From positions 1 to 64,000 of the IMG/VR virus record IMGVR_UViG_3300047554_000255: a stretch of DNA of 64,000 bases. The stretch is one strand, 5' to 3'. The position numbers were made by a program, and so were the translations under genes. The notes below the pieces were generated by a model, which was not told the DNA's origin, searched no databases, and worked only from the letters and a program-made list of their open reading frames with translations. The stretch is from a virus. Positions 2,835 through 39,973 of this stretch are shown here, in pieces. Position 1 is the first letter of the stretch. Each line of letters starts with the position of its first letter.

Positions 2835-3554
2835 ATGAAGATACTTCATATATCAGACACACACAGCTTTCATGAAATGATGCCTGAAGATAGGTTCTTA
2901 GGTATTGACGTAGTTATACATAGTGGGGATTGTTCTAATCCAAAGAACCCTTACACGAATGAACATGAGGTAAGAAAGTTTATCGATTGGTATGCTATGG
3001 TTCCTGTACAACACAAAATCTATGTTGCAGGTAATCATGATACATCAATTGAGCGTAGACTTGTTAAAGCAACTGACTTTGAAGATAAGGGTATTATATA
3101 CCTTGAGAATGATAGTGTTACTATTGATGGTGTTAACTTCTGGGGATCACCACATACTCCAAAGTTTGGTGACTGGGCTTTTATGAAAGCAAGAGACAAA
3201 CTAAACAAAGTATGGGAATCAATACCAGATAATACTGATGTCATTATTGTTCATGGTCCACCAAAAAGTGTTAGAGACCTTAGTTATAATCGTGCTGGTG
3301 AACTTGAGTTCTGTGGTTGTTCAGCGTTGATGAAACGTTGTTTAGCTTTAAAAGATAATCTCAAGCTTGTAGCCTTTGGACATATCCATAACATGGATGG
3401 TATAGAGACTAATCAAGGCGTATCACAATACTCGACCACGCCTACTATATTCTCGAATGGTGCTTGTGTATATGATGGTAGATTTAGACAAGGTTTAACC
3501 TCATTTGGTAATGTAATAGAACTAGCTAAACAACAAGACCATGAAACTAAATGA
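2835..3554 (+). CDS. Metallophosphoesterase, MPPED-like (239 aa)
   Basis: Signature motifs are DTH at residues 8-10, GD at 31-32, GNHD at 66-69, a HGPP loop near residue 138 and FGHIH near 178. HGPP followed by GHIH, and the short N-terminus, resemble the MPPED1/239FB-type subgroup of calcineurin-like phosphoesterases, which act on small phosphodiesters. It is not closely similar to the phosphoesterase at 752-1417, so the two are probably separate acquisitions. Its stop lies inside the next gene, whose ATG is 14 bases upstream. Confidence 0.88.
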   Translation: MKILHISDTHSFHEMMPEDRFLGIDVVIHSGDCSNPKNPYTNEHEVRKFIDWYAMVPVQHKIYVAGNHDTSIERRLVKATDFEDKGIIYLENDSVTIDGVNFWGSPHTPKFGDWAFMKARDKLNKVWESIPDNTDVIIVHGPPKSVRDLSYNRAGELEFCGCSALMKRCLALKDNLKLVAFGHIHNMDGIETNQGVSQYSTTPTIFSNGACVYDGRFRQGLTSFGNVIELAKQQDHETK

Positions 3555-3754: not shown

Positions 3755-3958
3755 ATGACTGAAGATGAAGTATATAGTGCTATAGAAAACACTATCATAA
3801 AATGGGTTATTGACGGTACTAAAACTGCAGGTTCTTTAACTAGAGAGATTATGCCAATAGTAAAAAAGTATAAACCAACTCCTTACCAGGAACATCGTAA
3901 GATTAAAGACGAGTGGGGTAATACCGACTGGCGAGATACAGGTGAAATGGGAGGCTAA
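3755..3958 (+). CDS. Small protein of unknown function (67 aa)
   Basis: A soluble 67-residue protein: an N-terminal helix, then a Lys/Pro-rich stretch and a Trp/Asp-containing C-terminus. No family is recognised. It lies in register with its neighbours, with gaps of 4 and 11 bases, and no competing frame is convincing. Confidence 0.5.
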   Translation: MTEDEVYSAIENTIIKWVIDGTKTAGSLTREIMPIVKKYKPTPYQEHRKIKDEWGNTDWRDTGEMGG

Positions 3959-3969
3959 ACAACAAGAAG

Positions 3970-4383
3970 ATGGCAAATAAAGAAGAAGATGAGTTATTAG
4001 ACTATCCTTATCCAGATAAGTTATTAGATGAAGATGGATACCCAACTGAAGAAGCTTTAGATTATATCAAAAACTGGAGCTGTGGTTTTGTTAACGGTAC
4101 TTATGTCTTAGGTAAGTATTACAAGAATCTTGACTTTACAGACCTTATTGAGTATATCCGATCTATCTGGTATTATGATGATGCTATTGTTTATAAGCAT
4201 GGTCTTTTAGAGATACATACACTAGGTTGGTCTGGTAATGAAGATATCATTCGTGAGTTACGTAATACTACTATGTGGCAGTTTAGACACGAAGCTACAG
4301 AATCAGGTGGTCACTACTACTTTCGTTTGAATAAGAAGAGTAGATATACTTGGGCAGTAAAAAGAGTTAAAGCACTTTGGTAA
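3970..4383 (+). CDS. Protein of unknown function (137 aa)
   Basis: An acidic N-terminus (residues 1-30, Asp/Glu-rich) precedes a domain rich in Trp, Tyr and Gly. A small mixed alpha/beta fold seems likely but none is recognised. Its TAA stop overlaps the ATG of the next gene at 4383, so the two are probably coupled. Confidence 0.6.
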   Translation: MANKEEDELLDYPYPDKLLDEDGYPTEEALDYIKNWSCGFVNGTYVLGKYYKNLDFTDLIEYIRSIWYYDDAIVYKHGLLEIHTLGWSGNEDIIRELRNTTMWQFRHEATESGGHYYFRLNKKSRYTWAVKRVKALW

Positions 4384-4649
4384 TGGAATCACCTTATTTA
4401 ATGTTAATCCTTGCTATACTATCAATGGGTATGTTTCTTCCAGCCCCTCCAGGAATCTTTGGAGCTTTGCTGGATTACTATGTTTTTGGTGGTAAGGAAG
4501 AAGAACGAAGAAAACAAAGACTGTTTGAGCTATTGCAAAAACTTGAAGATCATGGTACTGACTTTCATACTGAGCTTAGAAAAGCCAGAAAAGGTGAGAG
4601 TAAATACTTCACAGTAAACAATGTTCGACGTAAACAACAAGACAAATGA
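4383..4649 (+). CDS. Small membrane protein (88 aa)
   Basis: The ATG at 4383 in a TAATG junction is chosen over an in-frame TTG six bases upstream. The first 30 or so residues are hydrophobic and Pro/Gly-containing, giving one membrane segment. The rest is a charged Lys/Glu/Arg helix that should face the cytoplasm. No family is recognised. The stop overlaps the next start by 4 bases. Confidence 0.55.
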   Translation: MESPYLMLILAILSMGMFLPAPPGIFGALLDYYVFGGKEEERRKQRLFELLQKLEDHGTDFHTELRKARKGESKYFTVNNVRRKQQDK

Positions 4650-4888
4650 CATACGAAGAAGCACAAGAGTTATCTCTTATAGTAAAGTGGAAAACATCCA
4701 CTTGTAGTCAAGGTGAAGAGTGCTGGTGTAGAACTATTGTTCCTGTTGTACCTATTCTATATAGCGAGTATCAAATGATTGATACAGAACAAGAGTATAC
4801 AGTAGTACGTCCAGGTGAACTTAATAAAGAACTAGCCGAACACTTTGTTAGATTACATAATAATTGGATAGATGACGAAAGAGAGTAA
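4646..4888 (+). CDS. Small protein of unknown function with a Cys cluster (80 aa)
   Basis: Residues 19-28 contain three cysteines (CSQGEECWCR), which could bind a metal, although a full four-ligand zinc site is not evident. The C-terminal half is helical and acidic. It has an ATGA overlap with the preceding gene and overlaps the following one by 17 bases. No family is recognised. Confidence 0.55.
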   Translation: MTYEEAQELSLIVKWKTSTCSQGEECWCRTIVPVVPILYSEYQMIDTEQEYTVVRPGELNKELAEHFVRLHNNWIDDERE

Positions 4889-5231
4889 ATATGGTAAAGT
4901 AGTCACTGGGAGTGGTGAACTAGAAATAATAGACTTTGTACAAGCACATTATCTTGATAATCGTACAATAACAGTTGCTTCATTAGAAGATGGTAGTTAT
5001 GCTTTACTTGTTGAGAATCCTGAATCATCAGGAAGAAACACAACATCAAAGATGTGGTTAAGTAAAGAAAGTACTGTAGGTTTATTTAGCACTATATCTA
5101 TGCACTTTGAAGCAAAAGGTATAAACTTGCTTGATGAGTTAAAACAAGCACTTAATAGTGATGGAAAGATATCTTATGGTATCTCTGACAACCTACAAAA
5201 ACTAAAAGATGATGACAAAACTAGTAGTTAA
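4872..5231 (+). CDS. Protein of unknown function (119 aa)
   Basis: A soluble protein with an N-terminal beta-rich half (alternating hydrophobic strands at about residues 10-50) and a helical C-terminal half with a Lys/Asp-rich tail. No motif identifies a family. The 17-base overlap upstream and 23-base overlap downstream fit the compact early operon. Confidence 0.55.
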   Translation: MTKESKYGKVVTGSGELEIIDFVQAHYLDNRTITVASLEDGSYALLVENPESSGRNTTSKMWLSKESTVGLFSTISMHFEAKGINLLDELKQALNSDGKISYGISDNLQKLKDDDKTSS

Positions 5232-5511
5232 ACTAAACATTCTGTGGAATATCATAACTAACAAGTATAAGCACTTTGTTGTACTTGATATCAGTGAAGA
5301 GCAGATGATCAATCTGTTTTCTGATGAAGACTTTGAAGTTGAAGTAATGTATCATGGGCTACAACCTTATGTTGTTCAGAGAATGATTAATCAGTGCTCA
5401 ACTGTAAAAGATGATATCGATATGATATTAGATAAAGCACAGTTTGAAGCAGAAGCTGAGTTACATAACCGTAAAAAAAAGCCAGATGGTAATCAAACAT
5501 CAGAAGACTAA
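5209..5511 (+). CDS. Protein of unknown function (100 aa)
   Basis: A soluble helical protein with an acidic middle and a charged C-terminus. The start at 5209 is the first of two consecutive ATG codons. It overlaps the following radical SAM gene by 26 bases if that gene starts at 5486. No family is recognised. Confidence 0.5.
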   Translation: MMTKLVVKLNILWNIITNKYKHFVVLDISEEQMINLFSDEDFEVEVMYHGLQPYVVQRMINQCSTVKDDIDMILDKAQFEAEAELHNRKKKPDGNQTSED

Positions 5512-6358
5512 AACATTAGTCACAAAACCAAATGGGAGGAGTAGCGATGCTGTTTCTCCCAACTTTATTTATGGGTGTGCAGGAGGATGTATGGTATCAT
5601 ATTGTTATGTTGGACGATTTAACGATACAACAGTTTATATCAATGATAATGTTGACGACATACTAGCTAGTATTGAAAGCTGGGTTGATAAACAACCATG
5701 GCCTAAAGAACCTAACCAGTGTGATGATAGATACTATACTATCGATATTGGTTGTAGTACTGATATTGCTTTACATCATAAACATTATGACTGGCAAAAA
5801 GTATTTACGTTCTTTAATGAGCATCCAAAACTGAAGAGCACGTTTGCAACAAAGTATCCTAATAGATTTCCTCTTGATGATTATATAATAGATCCTACAA
5901 AGAACCGTATTAGAGTGTCTTTAATGCCTCAGATATATGCTGAGATACTTGAGCCTAATACAACTCGTATTGATAAAAGGATTGCTAGTATAAAAGATCT
6001 ACAAAAGAAGTTTGAAGTACACATAAACTTCTCTCCTATTATCATTAGAGAAGAAAGTAGTTGGTTGCATCAATATGCTAAGTTATTTAATTCATTACGT
6101 GTTCTTGGTATTGATGTACCATGTGAGTGTATCTTTATGACTTATAGTGATATACAAGCAAAGCGTAATCAAGAGAGTGAAGAAGGTAAACGCATCAATG
6201 TATTACTCTATAATCCAGCCTCGCAAGAGTACAAGAAATCAGAGTATGGAGGTATAAACTTGCGTTACTCACGAGACATAAAGCCTCTAGCGATTGATAC
6301 GTTTAAGGCAGTTTATCGTCAGTACTTTGATGTATCTAATATCAGATATATTTTTTAA
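5486..6358 (+). CDS. Spore photoproduct lyase-like radical SAM protein (290 aa)
   Basis: A GCAGGCMVSYCYV segment gives cysteines at residues 31, 35 and 40, the place of the radical SAM 4Fe-4S motif. Downstream segments parallel spore photoproduct lyase (SPL): GCSTDI near residue 90, ATKYPNR, a RVSLMP strand, EPNTTRIDKRI and HINFSPIIIREESSW. SPL uses a SAM radical to reverse a thymine photodimer. The Cys at about 90 aligns by eye with SPL's hydrogen-donor Cys141. The spacing is CX3CX4C, not the usual CX3CX2C. An ATG 42 bases upstream is in frame, but 5486 gives a smaller overlap. Family call is good; substrate is unknown. Confidence 0.75.
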   Translation: MVIKHQKTKTLVTKPNGRSSDAVSPNFIYGCAGGCMVSYCYVGRFNDTTVYINDNVDDILASIESWVDKQPWPKEPNQCDDRYYTIDIGCSTDIALHHKHYDWQKVFTFFNEHPKLKSTFATKYPNRFPLDDYIIDPTKNRIRVSLMPQIYAEILEPNTTRIDKRIASIKDLQKKFEVHINFSPIIIREESSWLHQYAKLFNSLRVLGIDVPCECIFMTYSDIQAKRNQESEEGKRINVLLYNPASQEYKKSEYGGINLRYSRDIKPLAIDTFKAVYRQYFDVSNIRYIF

Positions 6359-6371
6359 CTTGCAAAAAACT

Positions 6372-6680
6372 ATGAGCAATCAAAGAAATGAGTATACTAA
6401 GTTTGGTATTAACTATATTAGCAGCAACTCAACACTAATATATAATCATGTTGCTTTACATGAAGAGACAGGTAATGTATTAGAGGTAAAAGAGTTTTAT
6501 GATAATGGAGTTAGTAACGGTTGGTTGCCACACAATCTACCAGGAGAGATAGCAAGTACATGCGGTGCAAACTTTGCAATAAACGTAAAGCTCCATGTTG
6601 AGATAACAGCTGAAGAGTTTTGGCTGGTATATGAACGAGTAGCAACAAAGCTACTATTATTAGCAATAAGCAATGAATAA
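6372..6680 (+). CDS. Protein of unknown function (102 aa)
   Basis: The ATG at 6372 (MSNQRNEYTKFG) is preferred to longer in-frame starts that would run deep into the radical SAM gene. A soluble protein with a beta-rich N-terminal half and a helical C-terminal half. No domain is recognised. It overlaps the following gene by 8 bases. Confidence 0.55.
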   Translation: MSNQRNEYTKFGINYISSNSTLIYNHVALHEETGNVLEVKEFYDNGVSNGWLPHNLPGEIASTCGANFAINVKLHVEITAEEFWLVYERVATKLLLLAISNE

Positions 6681-7221
6681 GTTAAAAGAGATACAACTAA
6701 AGTTGATATACTGGAAACATCGAGTATATACGTTAGTAAGCAATCTATGGTATTGGATACCACGAATCTACGACTGTAACCCTTGGGATTATGTGTACTT
6801 AGAAAGACTAGTAACAGATCAGCTTGCTCGTATGACTAATGAGTTTGAGTTATTCAATGCTAAGTATAACTCAGAGCGTGAACTAAGAGAGATAAAGATA
6901 GCTCATAAGTTATTATATCGAGTACAGACTGGTTATTACCACAATGAACTAGATAAATACTATGGTGCAGATTATAATATCGATGCTCAAGGACATTTTA
7001 CAGCAACAACTAACTTCGACAACCTTGGTGAATACTTTGATAAGTATCCAAATGCATACAAAAAAGCAGTTCGTTGGCATAGTAAGATGAGTAAAGCAGA
7101 ACATGGTAGTGATAAGTCTAGATTTATGATAGGCAACTATATGTCTGAGATTCTGCATTCAAAAGCTAGACGATTAGCTTATAAAATAATCGCTGAATAC
7201 TCACCAAGATGGTGGGTTTAA
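6673..7221 (+). CDS. Conserved phage protein of unknown function (182 aa)
   Basis: A Trp/Tyr-rich helical protein. A segment of the form NPWDYVYLERLVTDQLARM (about residues 35-53) and the helical region after it resemble a family I recall from many phages, in which a WD-Y-x-L helix precedes a long charged region. No catalytic motif is visible and no function is established to my knowledge. The WWV C-terminus is unusual and could be a docking tail. Confidence 0.65.
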   Translation: MNKLKEIQLKLIYWKHRVYTLVSNLWYWIPRIYDCNPWDYVYLERLVTDQLARMTNEFELFNAKYNSERELREIKIAHKLLYRVQTGYYHNELDKYYGADYNIDAQGHFTATTNFDNLGEYFDKYPNAYKKAVRWHSKMSKAEHGSDKSRFMIGNYMSEILHSKARRLAYKIIAEYSPRWWV

Positions 7222-13998: not shown

Positions 13999-14028
13999 CA
14001 AAGATAACAAGATTTATGAGTTCACAAA
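13999..14028 (-). promoter_or_regulatory. Bacteroidota-type promoter for the minus-strand gene
   Basis: Read on the minus strand: TTTG (14028-14025), 18 bases, TATCTTTG (14006-13999), an exact match to TTTG-N-TAnnTTTG. The ATG at 13982 is 17 bases downstream. The -33 element lies inside the start of the uracil-DNA glycosylase gene. Confidence 0.8.
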
Positions 14029-14738
14029 CAGTTGATCTGAAAGAGATTCAAGAGAAGTTGATTGATAAGCTGAGAGATTCAGGATGGGCAGACAAGCTAA
14101 AAAGCTTCTTGATGTCTAATGAGTTCAGTGAGGTATTACAAACACTTCACTCAATGAAGGATGATGGTAAACGTTTTACCCCACCTTTAAAGCATATCTT
14201 CTCTGCTTTTGAAGAATGTCCTTATAGAGACCTTAAGGTTGTCATCATAGGACAAGATCCATATCCACAGTTAGGTGTGGCAGATGGTAAAGCATTCTCT
14301 TGCTCAATAACAAAAGAGTTACAACCAAGTCTTAAGTACATCTTTGATGCTATTGAAAAGACTATACATCAAGAGTTTCCAACGTACCAAGATCCAGATC
14401 TAACCCGTTGGTCAAATCAAGGCGTATTGTTGCTTAATACGGCGTTAACCACAGAAGTGGGAAAGATTGGTAGTCACTATAACGTGTGGCTAAAGTTTAT
14501 AGTATATGTAGTTGATATGCTTTCATGGTATAATCCTGGTTTAATCTGGGTATTCATGGGTAAGCAAGCACAAGAGTTAGAATCTCTTGTTAGTAGTAAT
14601 CATTATAAGTTTTTAATCTCACACCCTGCATCAGCTGGTTATCAAGGATCAAAAGAGTGGGACTGTGAAGATGTGTTTAATAAAGTTAATGAGATTATTG
14701 CAGCCAATAATGGCAAGGATCAAACAATTAAATGGTAG
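14016..14738 (+). CDS. ung: Uracil-DNA glycosylase, family 1-like (240 aa)
   Basis: The catalytic water-activating motif is GQDPY (residues 79-83), followed by a uracil-binding AFSCS segment, LLLNTALT (about 134-141) and a C-terminal SHPASAGY loop where family 1 enzymes have HPSP. It removes uracil from DNA and starts base-excision repair. The residue after GQDPY is Pro, whereas typical enzymes have His. It is a core gene of crAss-like phages. With the dUTPase at 38392 it would keep phage DNA free of uracil. The next gene starts two bases after its stop. Confidence 0.92.
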   Translation: MSSQTVDLKEIQEKLIDKLRDSGWADKLKSFLMSNEFSEVLQTLHSMKDDGKRFTPPLKHIFSAFEECPYRDLKVVIIGQDPYPQLGVADGKAFSCSITKELQPSLKYIFDAIEKTIHQEFPTYQDPDLTRWSNQGVLLLNTALTTEVGKIGSHYNVWLKFIVYVVDMLSWYNPGLIWVFMGKQAQELESLVSSNHYKFLISHPASAGYQGSKEWDCEDVFNKVNEIIAANNGKDQTIKW

Positions 14739-16330: not shown

Positions 16331-17887
16331 ATGGCTAAGAAACAGTATAAAAACGTGTTTACAATCATGGAGAAAGTAAAGAAGGGGGAGCTAGATTTTT
16401 CTGGCTCTTCCCGATTTACGAGTATCATTGGTTCGTATAAAAAACCTGAGTTAGTAGAGCCATATATTCACTATATAGATGCTTATCGATTAAATGAGTT
16501 TGTAAAGAAAGCCTTTATTCCTGGCTATTCAGCTAGTGGTAGTAACCATAACACTATGGTTCAAACCGCTGAGAAGATTAATAAGATGAAAGGTCGTGAG
16601 CAGTGGCACTTTTCAGTTGAAGAGATGACTGAAGCTTATCAATCAATCCCATCTTCACTAAAGAACGATATCTTTAATATGTTTAACAAACCTATTGACA
16701 AGATTGACTTCAAAGCTCGTAATGAGAAGAATCAGATGCGCTATAAACTTCTTGAGTTAGCGAATGATCCAAGTTTAAAGATCTTAACTGAAGGATCAAA
16801 TGTAAAGTCTGGTATGTTTACTCAGAGCATGATGACATATCTTACTTACTTTATGCTAAGACTAAAGAAGCAAGATGAAGAAGCTCATGAGGAGATGAAA
16901 AATCAGCTAAATCAACCTGATGGCGACGGAGATGATGATGATCAAGACGGAGACCAAGATGACCAAGCACAAGGTCAAAGTGGTTCTGGTAAAGGATCTG
17001 GAAAGAATCAGCAGAAGATAGAGAAAGCTATTGATAAAGCTCTTAAGCAAACTAGAGATCAGTTAGAAAGAGAGATGCAAGATGCAGCTCAACATATCAA
17101 TGAACTAACTGAGAATATTGGTGAAGAAGAGCTTGAAGAAGCTTGGAACAAGAACACTGGTATCGGTGGTATGACTAAGCATGAGATAGAGCGAGCACTT
17201 GAGTCTTTAAAGAAGATCAAGATGAATGATTCTGTACTTAAGAACAACATCAAGATGATCTTAGATAAATCAAAGAATTACTTCTCAGGGCAAGAACGCA
17301 TTACACATGAGTCTTTGTTCGAGTCAGGTAACTTCGATGGCTTAGAGGACTATGTAATGCTTCATCCAAAGCTCAGAAATCTATTTCCAGAAGATATCAC
17401 AACAAGAAACGTTGAACGTAAAGGTAAGATTAACCTTTATATCGATATATCTGGTTCGATGTCTGAAGGATGTGGCGTTAGAGATGTTGACGGTAGAGGA
17501 TTAAGCAAGCTTGAGTTTGCAAAAGCGATTGCTCTTGTAATGAAAAAGAATAATATGCTTAATAAACTGTATTCTTTCAATCAAGACATCCATCCACTAA
17601 GAACAACAGACTTTGCTATTGCATCTTTGGATGACATGGGTGGTACAAGTATTACTAAGGTAGTACAGCATGTGATTAAATCACAAGAGAACAGCTTAGT
17701 ACTTACTGATGCTGAAGATCGTTGTGGTATCTATACTGATAAAGTATTCTTCCTTGGTGTTAAAGGTAGTATGTTTAGTTACTTTAGTGACCACGTACTA
17801 GCTGACTACCATCAAAACCAGATGTCTGTATTCGATGGTGAAAGAATCTTATCAGTTGATAAGAAAGGCTATACCATTAAAGGTTAA
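16331..17887 (+). CDS. VWA-domain protein, MoxR partner (518 aa)
   Basis: The C-terminal 160 residues are a von Willebrand factor A domain with MIDAS motif DISGSMS at 372-378 and a GGTSIT segment near 437. The N-terminal 190 residues are helical. Between them lie an Asp/Gly/Gln-rich acidic linker (about 198-225) and a coiled-coil region (about 230-290). The layout resembles ViaA/CoxE-type partners of MoxR ATPases, which bind clients through the metal site. Its last 11 bases overlap the convergent minus-strand gene, with no terminator between them. Confidence 0.85.
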   Translation: MAKKQYKNVFTIMEKVKKGELDFSGSSRFTSIIGSYKKPELVEPYIHYIDAYRLNEFVKKAFIPGYSASGSNHNTMVQTAEKINKMKGREQWHFSVEEMTEAYQSIPSSLKNDIFNMFNKPIDKIDFKARNEKNQMRYKLLELANDPSLKILTEGSNVKSGMFTQSMMTYLTYFMLRLKKQDEEAHEEMKNQLNQPDGDGDDDDQDGDQDDQAQGQSGSGKGSGKNQQKIEKAIDKALKQTRDQLEREMQDAAQHINELTENIGEEELEEAWNKNTGIGGMTKHEIERALESLKKIKMNDSVLKNNIKMILDKSKNYFSGQERITHESLFESGNFDGLEDYVMLHPKLRNLFPEDITTRNVERKGKINLYIDISGSMSEGCGVRDVDGRGLSKLEFAKAIALVMKKNNMLNKLYSFNQDIHPLRTTDFAIASLDDMGGTSITKVVQHVIKSQENSLVLTDAEDRCGIYTDKVFFLGVKGSMFSYFSDHVLADYHQNQMSVFDGERILSVDKKGYTIKG

Positions 17888-19199
17888 GCTTGGTACCAAT
17901 CATAAACATATAACTGTTAGGTCTAATGCTCTGCTCACTAAAAGCGAGTGTTAGACCACAGTTAAGTTTAAAACGTTTGGTTAGATTAAGATCAAAACTA
18001 GATCCTGTCATGGCGTTGAATGCTGGAGTTACAGTAACGCCTGTCTCTGATGCAACAACTGGAAAAGCTGAAGCTGTAATTGTTGGAGCTATTGATACTC
18101 TTTTACTAAGTACAATAGGCTTACTATAGAACATAAGCAAGCTACTACTTACTGTGTTCATTGCATAACTGATAGTCTCGTTTATACCAAAGATACCTTT
18201 ATTATTCTTTAAAGGTTTGATATAAGCAGCAGTAGCAAATGCTACATAGTTTCCTGATAAGTAAACTCCTGTAACACCATAGTTTGTTATATGAGATAAC
18301 TGACCTTTTGCAAAGTTCATCTTTGTATATCTACCAGATAAAGCAAACTGATTAAAGGTAGACCAGATCATACTGGTAACACCCCATGAGTCTGCTCCAG
18401 TCATTGAAGACTGAGACATACCAACTGATATTATTTGAGAAAAACTATTATCATCAGATAATAGAGAAGTAAGATCAGAGTTATATAAAATAGGATTAAC
18501 ACGGGCACTGGATTTGGCAGAGCTCTTACTGCTTTTCTTATCTTCGCTTTTTTTCTCTGACTTGGACTCACTTTTACTTTCTTCTTTGCTTTCTGACTTT
18601 GACTCATTACTTGATTCGCTTTTGGTTTCACTCTTTGTTTCAGAAGATGAGCTTGAACTACTACTTTCTGAAGAACTAGACGATGAACTAGATGATGATG
18701 AACTACTAGTACTTGTTGCACTTGGTGCTGGAGTACTACTTGCTGCAGAAGATGCAGCTGCGGATGCAGCAGAACTAGCTGTTGATGTAGCAGCTGATGT
18801 TGCAGAACTTGTTGCTGCACTAGTAGCAGCACTTGTCGCCGCAGATGTTGCAGCGGCAGTAGCAGCAGCGGTTGCACTTGCAGTTGCTTGATTAACTGCT
18901 GCACTAACTGCAGTATTAACTGTCTGCGTTACTACTTGATTTACTACTTGTTGTGTTTCAGGACATGGATATGCTGTTGTCAACATATTTAACCATGCTG
19001 TTAAAGCACCTGTAGTTATATCGTTTGCTGTAACTACTTTGTATTGACCTCTGTAAACAACAGTAACTGACCCACTTGCGATAGGTACAGTTACCGTTAA
19101 TACTTTTCCTGAACAAGGATCAACATATGTTTGTGACAACACTTGAGCATTACTCGTGTTCCACAATAATAACAAGATGATAATCCCTAACCATTTCAC
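17877..19199 (-). CDS. Exported protein with Ser/Ala low-complexity linker and probable outer-membrane barrel (440 aa)
   Basis: A signal peptide (residues 1-19, ending SNAQ) is followed by a small domain beginning YVDPCSGKVLTVTVP, then a very long low-complexity linker (about 105-230): Ala/Thr/Ser, then poly-Ser, then Ser/Lys/Glu. The C-terminal 200 residues have alternating hydrophobic, aromatic-rich strands ending MFMIGTKLNL, as in outer-membrane beta-barrels. I recall the same layout in uncultured aquatic phages. The start is GTG, in a TAGTG junction with the upstream gene. Host-surface modification or phage exclusion are possible roles; none is shown. Confidence 0.78.
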   Translation of the reverse strand: MKWLGIIILLLLWNTSNAQVLSQTYVDPCSGKVLTVTVPIASGSVTVVYRGQYKVVTANDITTGALTAWLNMLTTAYPCPETQQVVNQVVTQTVNTAVSAAVNQATASATAAATAAATSAATSAATSAATSSATSAATSTASSAASAAASSAASSTPAPSATSTSSSSSSSSSSSSSESSSSSSSSETKSETKSESSNESKSESKEESKSESKSEKKSEDKKSSKSSAKSSARVNPILYNSDLTSLLSDDNSFSQIISVGMSQSSMTGADSWGVTSMIWSTFNQFALSGRYTKMNFAKGQLSHITNYGVTGVYLSGNYVAFATAAYIKPLKNNKGIFGINETISYAMNTVSSSLLMFYSKPIVLSKRVSIAPTITASAFPVVASETGVTVTPAFNAMTGSSFDLNLTKRFKLNCGLTLAFSEQSIRPNSYMFMIGTKLNL

Positions 19200-38820: not shown

Positions 38821-39260
38821 CACACCTAAAGACTTGCTTATATCTTGATGATGTACGTACTCCACTAGAAGATAAGCCTGGATATCATCCATGGGTTATC
38901 GTTAGAAACTATGATCAGTTTGTTGAATACATAACTCAGCATGGAGTACCTGACTTTATATCGTTTGACCATGACTTAGGTAAAGAACATACTAATGACT
39001 ACTTTGCTCAAGTATTAGCTCAGGGTTTCCAAGATCCTAAGTACGATGACTATAAAGAAAAGACTGGTCTACACTGTGCTATGTGGCTAACAGAATATTG
39101 CATGGATAATAATGTTCCTCCAAAGACATGTGCTGTTCATAGTCATAATCCTGTAGGATCTAATAACATACAAAGTTGTATTAATAGTTTTAAGAAACAT
39201 CTAGGACTTCCTCAAGATTGTTATCTTGGAAGAGTACCTTTTAAAGTAACTGAAGAATGA
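38817..39260 (+). CDS. cREC-type (cyclic-phosphate-processing receiver-like) protein (147 aa)
   Basis: The N-terminus LYLDDVRTP is a receiver-like Asp pair. Next comes WVIVRNYDQF, then VPDFISFDHDLG with a second acidic cluster. A HCAMWLTEYC helix follows, and HSHNPVGSNNIQSCINSF closes the domain. These features match the family I know as the cyclic-phosphate-processing receiver domain, predicted to act on RNA 2',3'-cyclic phosphates in RNA repair or conflict systems. Substrate is not tested. Start overlaps the dUTPase stop by 4 bases. Confidence 0.75.
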   Translation: MTHLKTCLYLDDVRTPLEDKPGYHPWVIVRNYDQFVEYITQHGVPDFISFDHDLGKEHTNDYFAQVLAQGFQDPKYDDYKEKTGLHCAMWLTEYCMDNNVPPKTCAVHSHNPVGSNNIQSCINSFKKHLGLPQDCYLGRVPFKVTEE

Positions 39261-39973
39261 GAAAGAATCTAATAGGTATATCAGGTAAGATTGGTTCAGG
39301 AAAAGATACGGTTGGTAAAATCATACAGTATCTAAGTTCTGAATCATCTCAACAAAGAGGTAGAACGTTTGAAGAGTTTCTTAGAGGGAATAGTAATCCA
39401 GATGCTTATGGTTATTACTACCACTCTGATTGGGAAATCAAGAAGTTTGCTGGTAAACTAAAAGAAGTAGCTAGTTTGCTTACAGGTATTAGCGTACATG
39501 ACTTTGAGGACCAGGAGTTCAAGAAAACTGAGTTAGGTCCTGAGTGGAATCAGACAAGACTTTATAATAGCAATGCTCCGTGGATGACAGGTAATGAAAC
39601 ATACGAAGTACCTTTAACAGTAAGAGAACTCTTACAAAAAATAGGTACTGAGTGTATGAGAGATTGCCTACATGAAAATGTATGGGTCAACGCTTTATTT
39701 GCTGACTATGAATGTACTCACTCAGATCATTCCCCACATGGAGTTGACTGTTCTCAATGGCTTATTACTGATACACGTTTTCCTAATGAAGCACAAGCTA
39801 TAAAAAGCAAAGGGGGGATCATAGTTAAGGTAACTAGACCAGGGGAACAACAAGGTACTCACCCTAGTGAGACTGCTCTTGACGATTGGGACTTTGATGT
39901 TGTTATAGAGAACAACGGATCTATAGAAGATCTAATAGAAAAAGTTAAGATACAGTTAGGAGATATGCTATAA
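39257..39973 (+). CDS. Deoxynucleoside monophosphate kinase-like P-loop protein (238 aa)
   Basis: Walker A GKIGSGKDT lies at residues 10-18. The LLQKIGTECMRDCLHENVWV and ITDTRFPNEAQAI segments match phage T4 gp1-type dNMP kinases. It phosphorylates dNMPs, including the dTMP arising from dUTPase products, and so supplies precursors for replication. The central Trp-rich loop (about 90-115) is an insertion often seen in this family. Start overlaps the cREC gene stop by 4 bases. Confidence 0.85.
   Translation: MRKNLIGISGKIGSGKDTVGKIIQYLSSESSQQRGRTFEEFLRGNSNPDAYGYYYHSDWEIKKFAGKLKEVASLLTGISVHDFEDQEFKKTELGPEWNQTRLYNSNAPWMTGNETYEVPLTVRELLQKIGTECMRDCLHENVWVNALFADYECTHSDHSPHGVDCSQWLITDTRFPNEAQAIKSKGGIIVKVTRPGEQQGTHPSETALDDWDFDVVIENNGSIEDLIEKVKIQLGDML

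What the first reader, a model, noticed from the sequence alone, without database searches (positions are those of the whole stretch)
5486..6358. Spore-photoproduct-lyase-like radical SAM enzyme with a CX3CX4C cluster motif
Segments match SPL along most of its length, including a Cys in GCSTDI that aligns by eye with SPL's hydrogen-donor Cys141. But the cluster cysteines (residues 31, 35, 40) have two extra residues against the normal CX3CX2C. SPL repairs UV lesions in spores; this phage is inferred to infect a Bacteroidota host, which does not sporulate. It may repair phage DNA or modify it, or act on another substrate.
Basis: partly seen in the sequence, partly recalled or inferred. Interest (0 to 1): 0.7.

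Follow-up and report, generated by a model that had tools for sequence, protein, structure and literature searches.

The report
crAss-like phage DNA-repair-type radical enzyme
A crAss-like phage carries a relative of the enzyme that undoes UV damage in bacterial spores, and in this lineage the iron-sulfur-binding site has two extra residues that are kept in every close relative found, so it is a genuine natural variant and not a sequencing mistake.

Summary
Window 5486-6358 encodes a 290-residue spore-photoproduct-lyase (SPL) family radical-SAM protein with cluster cysteines C31, C35, C40 (CX3CX4C). It is not an error: all 54 full-length close viral relatives share the spacing, a motif scan finds it in 114 viral DNA stretches, and three Bacteroidota genomes carry it too. 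These form one clade (100/97 support) beside the ordinary CX3CX2C members. The three SPL radical-relay residues (C141, Y99, Y97 in B. subtilis) are present as C90, Y41, Y39 and are essentially invariant. The fold model matches SPL crystal structures best (TM 0.79). The gene is under purifying selection (dN/dS 0.07-0.19) and usually lies downstream of DNA polymerase B and a nucleotide kinase in crAss-like phages. In one phage it is fractured by a split intein placed exactly before the third cluster cysteine. Most likely it reverses a thymine photolesion in phage DNA by SPL-like chemistry (inferred). The substrate is open: about 55 N-terminal residues of the cellular family are missing and part of the substrate-side loop differs. 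New variant of a known kind; no earlier report found in the open-licence library searched.

The parts
5486..6358 (+). SPL-family radical SAM protein, 290 aa, CX3CX4C variant
5576..5608 (+). cluster motif C31-AGG-C35-MVSY39-C40-Y41 (residues 31-41), including the two SPL relay tyrosines
   Evidence: SPL roles from PMC3742179
5753..5755 (+). codon of C90, equivalent of SPL hydrogen-donor Cys141 (B. subtilis)/Cys140 (Geobacillus)
5852..5854 (+). codon of K123, aligned with SPL(Gt) Lys174, invariant in all groups
14016..14738 (+). uracil-DNA glycosylase (context; found in 8 of 16 related phage records)
36046..37992 (+). DNA polymerase B (context; in most relatives the SPL-like gene lies about 3 kb downstream of it)
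39257..39973 (+). deoxynucleoside monophosphate kinase (context; a dNMP-kinase gene is the usual close upstream neighbour in relatives)

Best explanation
A radical SAM enzyme of the spore photoproduct lyase family, made by a crAss-like phage together with its replication and nucleotide genes. Three cysteines (CX3CX4C) hold a 4Fe-4S cluster that cleaves SAM; the 5'-deoxyadenosyl radical abstracts hydrogen from a cross-linked thymine lesion (spore photoproduct or a close relative) in phage DNA, the bond breaks, Cys90 gives a hydrogen back, and Tyr41/Tyr39 return the radical so that SAM can be regenerated. Shown: family, fold, invariance of cluster cysteines, Y39 and Y41 and near-invariance of C90; clade-wide two-residue insertion; purifying selection; usual gene context. 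Inferred: cluster binding with the longer loop, lesion reversal as the reaction, a thymine dimer in DNA as the substrate.
For: TIGR03886 E 3e-58 and Pfam SPL above cut-off. AF2 model pLDDT 91.7; the six best PDB matches are all SPL, TM 0.75-0.79, next family 0.54. C31/C35/C40, Y39, Y41 invariant in 47 diverse members; C90 nearly so; these are the residues of the SPL mechanism (C91/95/98, Y97, Y99, C141; PMC3742179, PMC5368176). K123 matches SPL(Gt) K174 and is invariant. dN/dS 0.07-0.19. PolB and dNMP kinase upstream in 36 of 53 loci each. Split intein inserted at C40 in L067, the kind of conserved active-site position inteins favour. No photolyase seen in 16 related records.
Against: No substrate evidence. 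The position aligned with SPL(Gt) Arg304 (which I recall, without a source held here, as a lesion-contacting hairpin residue) is Q/E/H/G here. The phage form lacks ~55 residues at the N-terminus of the cellular family. The model is less confident at the cluster loop (pLDDT 66-67 for residues 31-50). The function of TIGR03886 itself has, as far as I know, not been tested.
Confidence: 0.5

Rival explanations
1. The enzyme modifies intact phage DNA (or a nucleotide), using SPL-like radical chemistry on thymine to protect the genome or mark it.
For: Usual place with PolB and dNMP kinase; dUTPase and UDG in the same genome; altered substrate-side loop and phage-X4-specific Cys215 could mean a changed substrate.
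Against: The hydrogen-return residues C90/Y41/Y39 that make SPL a redox-neutral, SAM-regenerating lyase are kept; no partner modification gene was identified among the neighbours examined.
Confidence: 0.2
2. It reverses a lesion or cross-link other than the spore photoproduct (another thymine photoproduct or adduct), as the whole TIGR03886 family may do in bacteria that do not sporulate.
For: Nearest family is TIGR03886, found in Bacteroidota genomes, where spore photoproduct should be rare; in Pontibacter it sits near a second, more SPL-like gene, which suggests a division of labour.
Against: Relay residues match SPL exactly; no direct evidence for another lesion.
Confidence: 0.2
3. The two-residue insertion abolished cluster binding, and the protein is now a DNA-binding protein or a relic.
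For: CX3CX4C was not found for any radical SAM enzyme in the literature searched; loop pLDDT is low.
Against: All three cysteines and both flanking tyrosines are invariant in the whole clade, in phages and in three bacterial genomes; dN/dS 0.07-0.19; ThiC works with another spacing, CX2CX4C (PMC4389238).
Confidence: 0.06

Closest known systems
TIGR03886 spore photoproduct lyase family protein (non-spore SPL family)
   Same: Best family match over residues 7-290; same GRSxD, YCY, C90, K123, QExKxS and RY-[IL]-F end as bacterial members
   Different: CX3CX4C not CX3CX2C; lacks about the first 61 model positions; 198 bits against an equivalog cut-off of 438
Spore photoproduct lyase SplB (TIGR04070, PF20903; PDB 4FHC and mutants)
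   Same: Fold (TM 0.79), C141/Y97/Y99 equivalents, K174 equivalent
   Different: About 20% identity, longer cluster loop, no N-terminal part, residue aligned with Arg304 differs
ThiC and other radical SAM enzymes with non-standard cysteine spacing (CX2CX4C in ThiC)
   Same: Departure from CX3CX2C compatible with activity (PMC4389238)
   Different: In ThiC the motif lies near the C-terminus, in another architecture
Split inteins with an inserted endonuclease gene ('fractured genes', recalled), for the L067 copy only
   Same: N half, HNH-like ORF on the opposite strand, C half with its own start
   Different: The host gene is a phage SPL-like enzyme and the site is its third cluster cysteine

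Membership tests
Radical SAM superfamily | CX3CX2C cluster motif | tested here: not met
   CX3CX4C in window and whole clade; Pfam PF04055 finds nothing in the phage record
Radical SAM superfamily | three cysteines binding a 4Fe-4S cluster that binds SAM | not testable with these tools
   cysteines invariant, but no coordinates or biochemistry; loop pLDDT 66-67
Radical SAM superfamily | partial barrel fold of the superfamily | tested here: met
   Foldseek best matches SPL TM 0.79, then PFL-activating enzyme TM 0.54
SPL family (TIGR03886 / PF20903) | sequence match to family model over most of its length | tested here: met
   TIGR03886 E 3e-58 over 7-290; PF20903 above gathering cut-off
SPL family (TIGR03886) | score over the equivalog cut-off | tested here: not met
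   197.7 vs 437.55 bits
Spore photoproduct lyase (functional) | H-donor Cys141 and relay Tyr97, Tyr99 | tested here: met
   C90, Y39, Y41, invariant in the X4 clade (roles PMC3742179)
Spore photoproduct lyase (functional) | lesion-contacting residues Lys174 and Arg304 (Gt; roles recalled) | tested here: inconclusive
   K174 kept as K123; R304 replaced
Spore photoproduct lyase (functional) | repairs 5-thyminyl-5,6-dihydrothymine | not testable with these tools
   needs an assay
crAss-like phages (context) | crAss-like RNA polymerase / large virion proteins | tested here: met
   1000-aa part of the 2829-aa protein matches phi14:2 'catalytic RNA polymerase subunit' and Flavobacterium, Bacteroides and crAssphage records;
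Split intein (L067 copy) | N- and C-terminal splicing motifs over curated cut-offs, Cys1, HN, +1 Cys | tested here: met
   TIGR01445 33.1 (cut-off 24.5), TIGR01443 18.0 (cut-off 15.6); junction SY|C...HN|CYV

The most novel reading that the evidence does not exclude
A phage lineage uses a radical SAM enzyme with a previously undescribed CX3CX4C cluster to repair spore-type photoproduct: DNA packed dry and tight in the capsid would behave under UV like DNA in a spore and form the same lesion, which the phage then reverses in the dark on infection.
Probability: 0.2. Interest if true: 0.85.

Novelty: new variant of a known kind. Interest (0 to 1): 0.6.

Why it matters
If active, it adds a naturally tolerated cysteine spacing to the radical SAM superfamily, seen against close CX3CX2C sisters, so the effect of the loop length can be tested within one family. 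It also points to light-independent UV-lesion reversal as a common trait of uncultured Bacteroidota phages (at least 579 related viral stretches) that is nearly absent from isolate collections and from PHROGs, and so easily overlooked.

Tried and rejected
Sequencing error: rejected, same spacing in 54/54 close relatives. Relic: rejected by dN/dS. Isolated phages with the gene: none in INPHARED for the window protein or for the L067 C-half, two weak unannotated hits at 23-25% for the X2 form. BFVD: no SPL-like structure, best TM 0.62 at 15% identity. More inteins at the same site by DNA pattern: only L067's own contig; the other three hits are unrelated proteins. Photolyase in 16 related records: none. 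Cys215 as partner of the insertion: invariant in phage X4 but absent in the bacterial X4 copies, so not required by the insertion. PolB as a marker of phage kinship: not diagnostic. PHROGs: no useful family for the window protein.

Full report
Check of the observation. Window 5486-6358 is an open frame of 290 residues with cysteines at 31, 35 and 40, spacing CX3CX4C. NCBIfam gives TIGR03886 (SPL family protein, E 3e-58, residues 7-290 on model positions 62-346), and TIGR04070/PF20903 (SPL proper) at E 2e-10 and 4e-12. Pfam Radical_SAM does not fire. phmmer against the PDB finds Geobacillus SPL at 1e-7 and aligns C31/C35/C40 with the SPL cluster cysteines with a two-residue gap before the third, Y39 and Y41 with Y96 and Y98 (Gt), C90 with C140 (Gt), and K123 with K174 (Gt) (Gt numbers by the offset that makes YCY = Y96-C97-Y98).

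The variant is real and most simply has one origin. Profile searches returned 80 best viral loci out of at least 579 matching stretches in IMG/VR and 12 loci in Bacteroidota genomes. All 54 full-length viral relatives above about 53% identity have C-x-GG-C-M-x-[ST]-Y-C-Y; the 38 others, at about 40% identity, have ordinary CX3CX2C. A DNA motif scan found the X4 form in 114 viral stretches. Among 395 sampled genomes of the phylum and 299 of one order, three bacterial genomes carry an X4 form (CLGGCRDSYC), one of them twice 18 kb apart. In a maximum-likelihood tree the X4 rows (25 phage, 4 bacterial) are one clade at 100/97, next to a clade of X2 phage genes; the bacterial long forms lie outside. 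The direction of transfer between phage and bacterium is not settled. The tree kept the insert's own columns, which are few.

Function-bearing residues. Between X4 and X2 groups the cluster cysteines, Y39, Y41, K123 and a set of arginines, serines and the C-terminal RY are invariant; C90 is missing only in one X2 phage, L094. In SPL, C141 gives the hydrogen back to the thymine radical, and Y99 and Y97 pass the radical on so that SAM is regenerated (PMC3742179, PMC5368176). All three being kept argues for SPL-type, redox-neutral chemistry. Differences: about 55 residues at the N-terminus of the bacterial X2 form are missing in the phage form; the residue aligned with SPL Arg304 is Q/E/H/G; phage X4 proteins have an extra invariant Cys215 (V in most X2, A in bacterial X4).

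Fold. An AF2 model from 47 sequences has pLDDT 91.7 and pTM 0.90, with residues 31-50 at 66-67. Foldseek's six best PDB matches are all SPL (TM 0.75-0.79); the next is PFL-activating enzyme at 0.54.

Selection and context. dN/dS between near relatives is 0.065-0.19. The window belongs to a crAss-like phage: a 1000-residue part of its 2829-aa protein matches the phi14:2 catalytic RNA polymerase subunit and Flavobacterium, Bacteroides and crAssphage records, another large protein has a short match to cr108_1 and relatives, and DnaB, primase, PolB, dUTPase, dNMP kinase and UDG are present, as listed for crAss-like phages in PMC7886860. In 36 of 53 X4 loci PolB lies about 3 kb upstream, and in 36 a dNMP kinase about 0.8 kb upstream, same strand; in the window the gene lies some 30 kb away from both. 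UDG occurs in 8 and ThyX in 5 of 16 related records, photolyase in none; records may be incomplete.

A fractured copy. In L067 the gene is two ORFs: 39 residues of N-extein followed by a 93-residue intein N-part (4928-5326), and a 41-residue intein C-part followed by 242-243 residues of C-extein (5902-6753), with an HNH-like ORF on the opposite strand (5070-5957; the HNH match is weak). Both intein models pass their cut-offs; Cys1, TxxH, HN and +1 Cys are present, and the +1 Cys is the third cluster cysteine. Joined by splicing, the product would have the family's usual length (about 282 residues). That an intein sits there fits the known preference of inteins for conserved active-site residues; splicing itself is not shown.

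Mechanism, rivals and verdict. The best-supported reading is light-independent reversal of a thymine photolesion in phage DNA (0.5); rivals are another lesion (0.2), modification of intact DNA (0.2) and loss of cluster function (0.06). Works like SPL: probable. Is SPL: not claimed, since activity was not testable, the equivalog score is not met and the canonical motif is not met. No paper in the held library joins SPL with crAss-like phages, and neither of the two papers holding the string CX3CX4C is about radical SAM enzymes, by title and abstract; the library is limited to open licences, so this is weak evidence of novelty.

Noticed in passing
L067:4928-6753: SPL-like phage gene fractured by a split intein exactly before the third cluster cysteine, with an HNH-like ORF on the opposite strand
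   Followed up: yes
L094:647-1498: CX3CX2C phage relative in which the H-donor Cys90 is Thr and an extra Cys follows the motif (CGFNCGYCYC): possibly changed chemistry
   Followed up: no
L215 and L217 (one bacterial genome, 18 kb apart): two copies of the CX3CX4C gene in one Bacteroidota genome
   Followed up: no
L008:2538-3620 (-) and 3824-4855 (+): Pontibacter carries a TIGR03886 gene divergent from a second, more SPL-like radical SAM gene
   Followed up: no
window 17877-19199 (-): 440-aa ORF with a long low-complexity Ala/Ser/Thr and Ser/Lys/Glu tract after a signal-like N-terminus
   Followed up: no
window 2835-3554 (+): calcineurin-like phosphoesterase gene (Pfam) about 2 kb upstream of the SPL-like gene; homologues occur near it in 23 loci including the window
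   Followed up: partly
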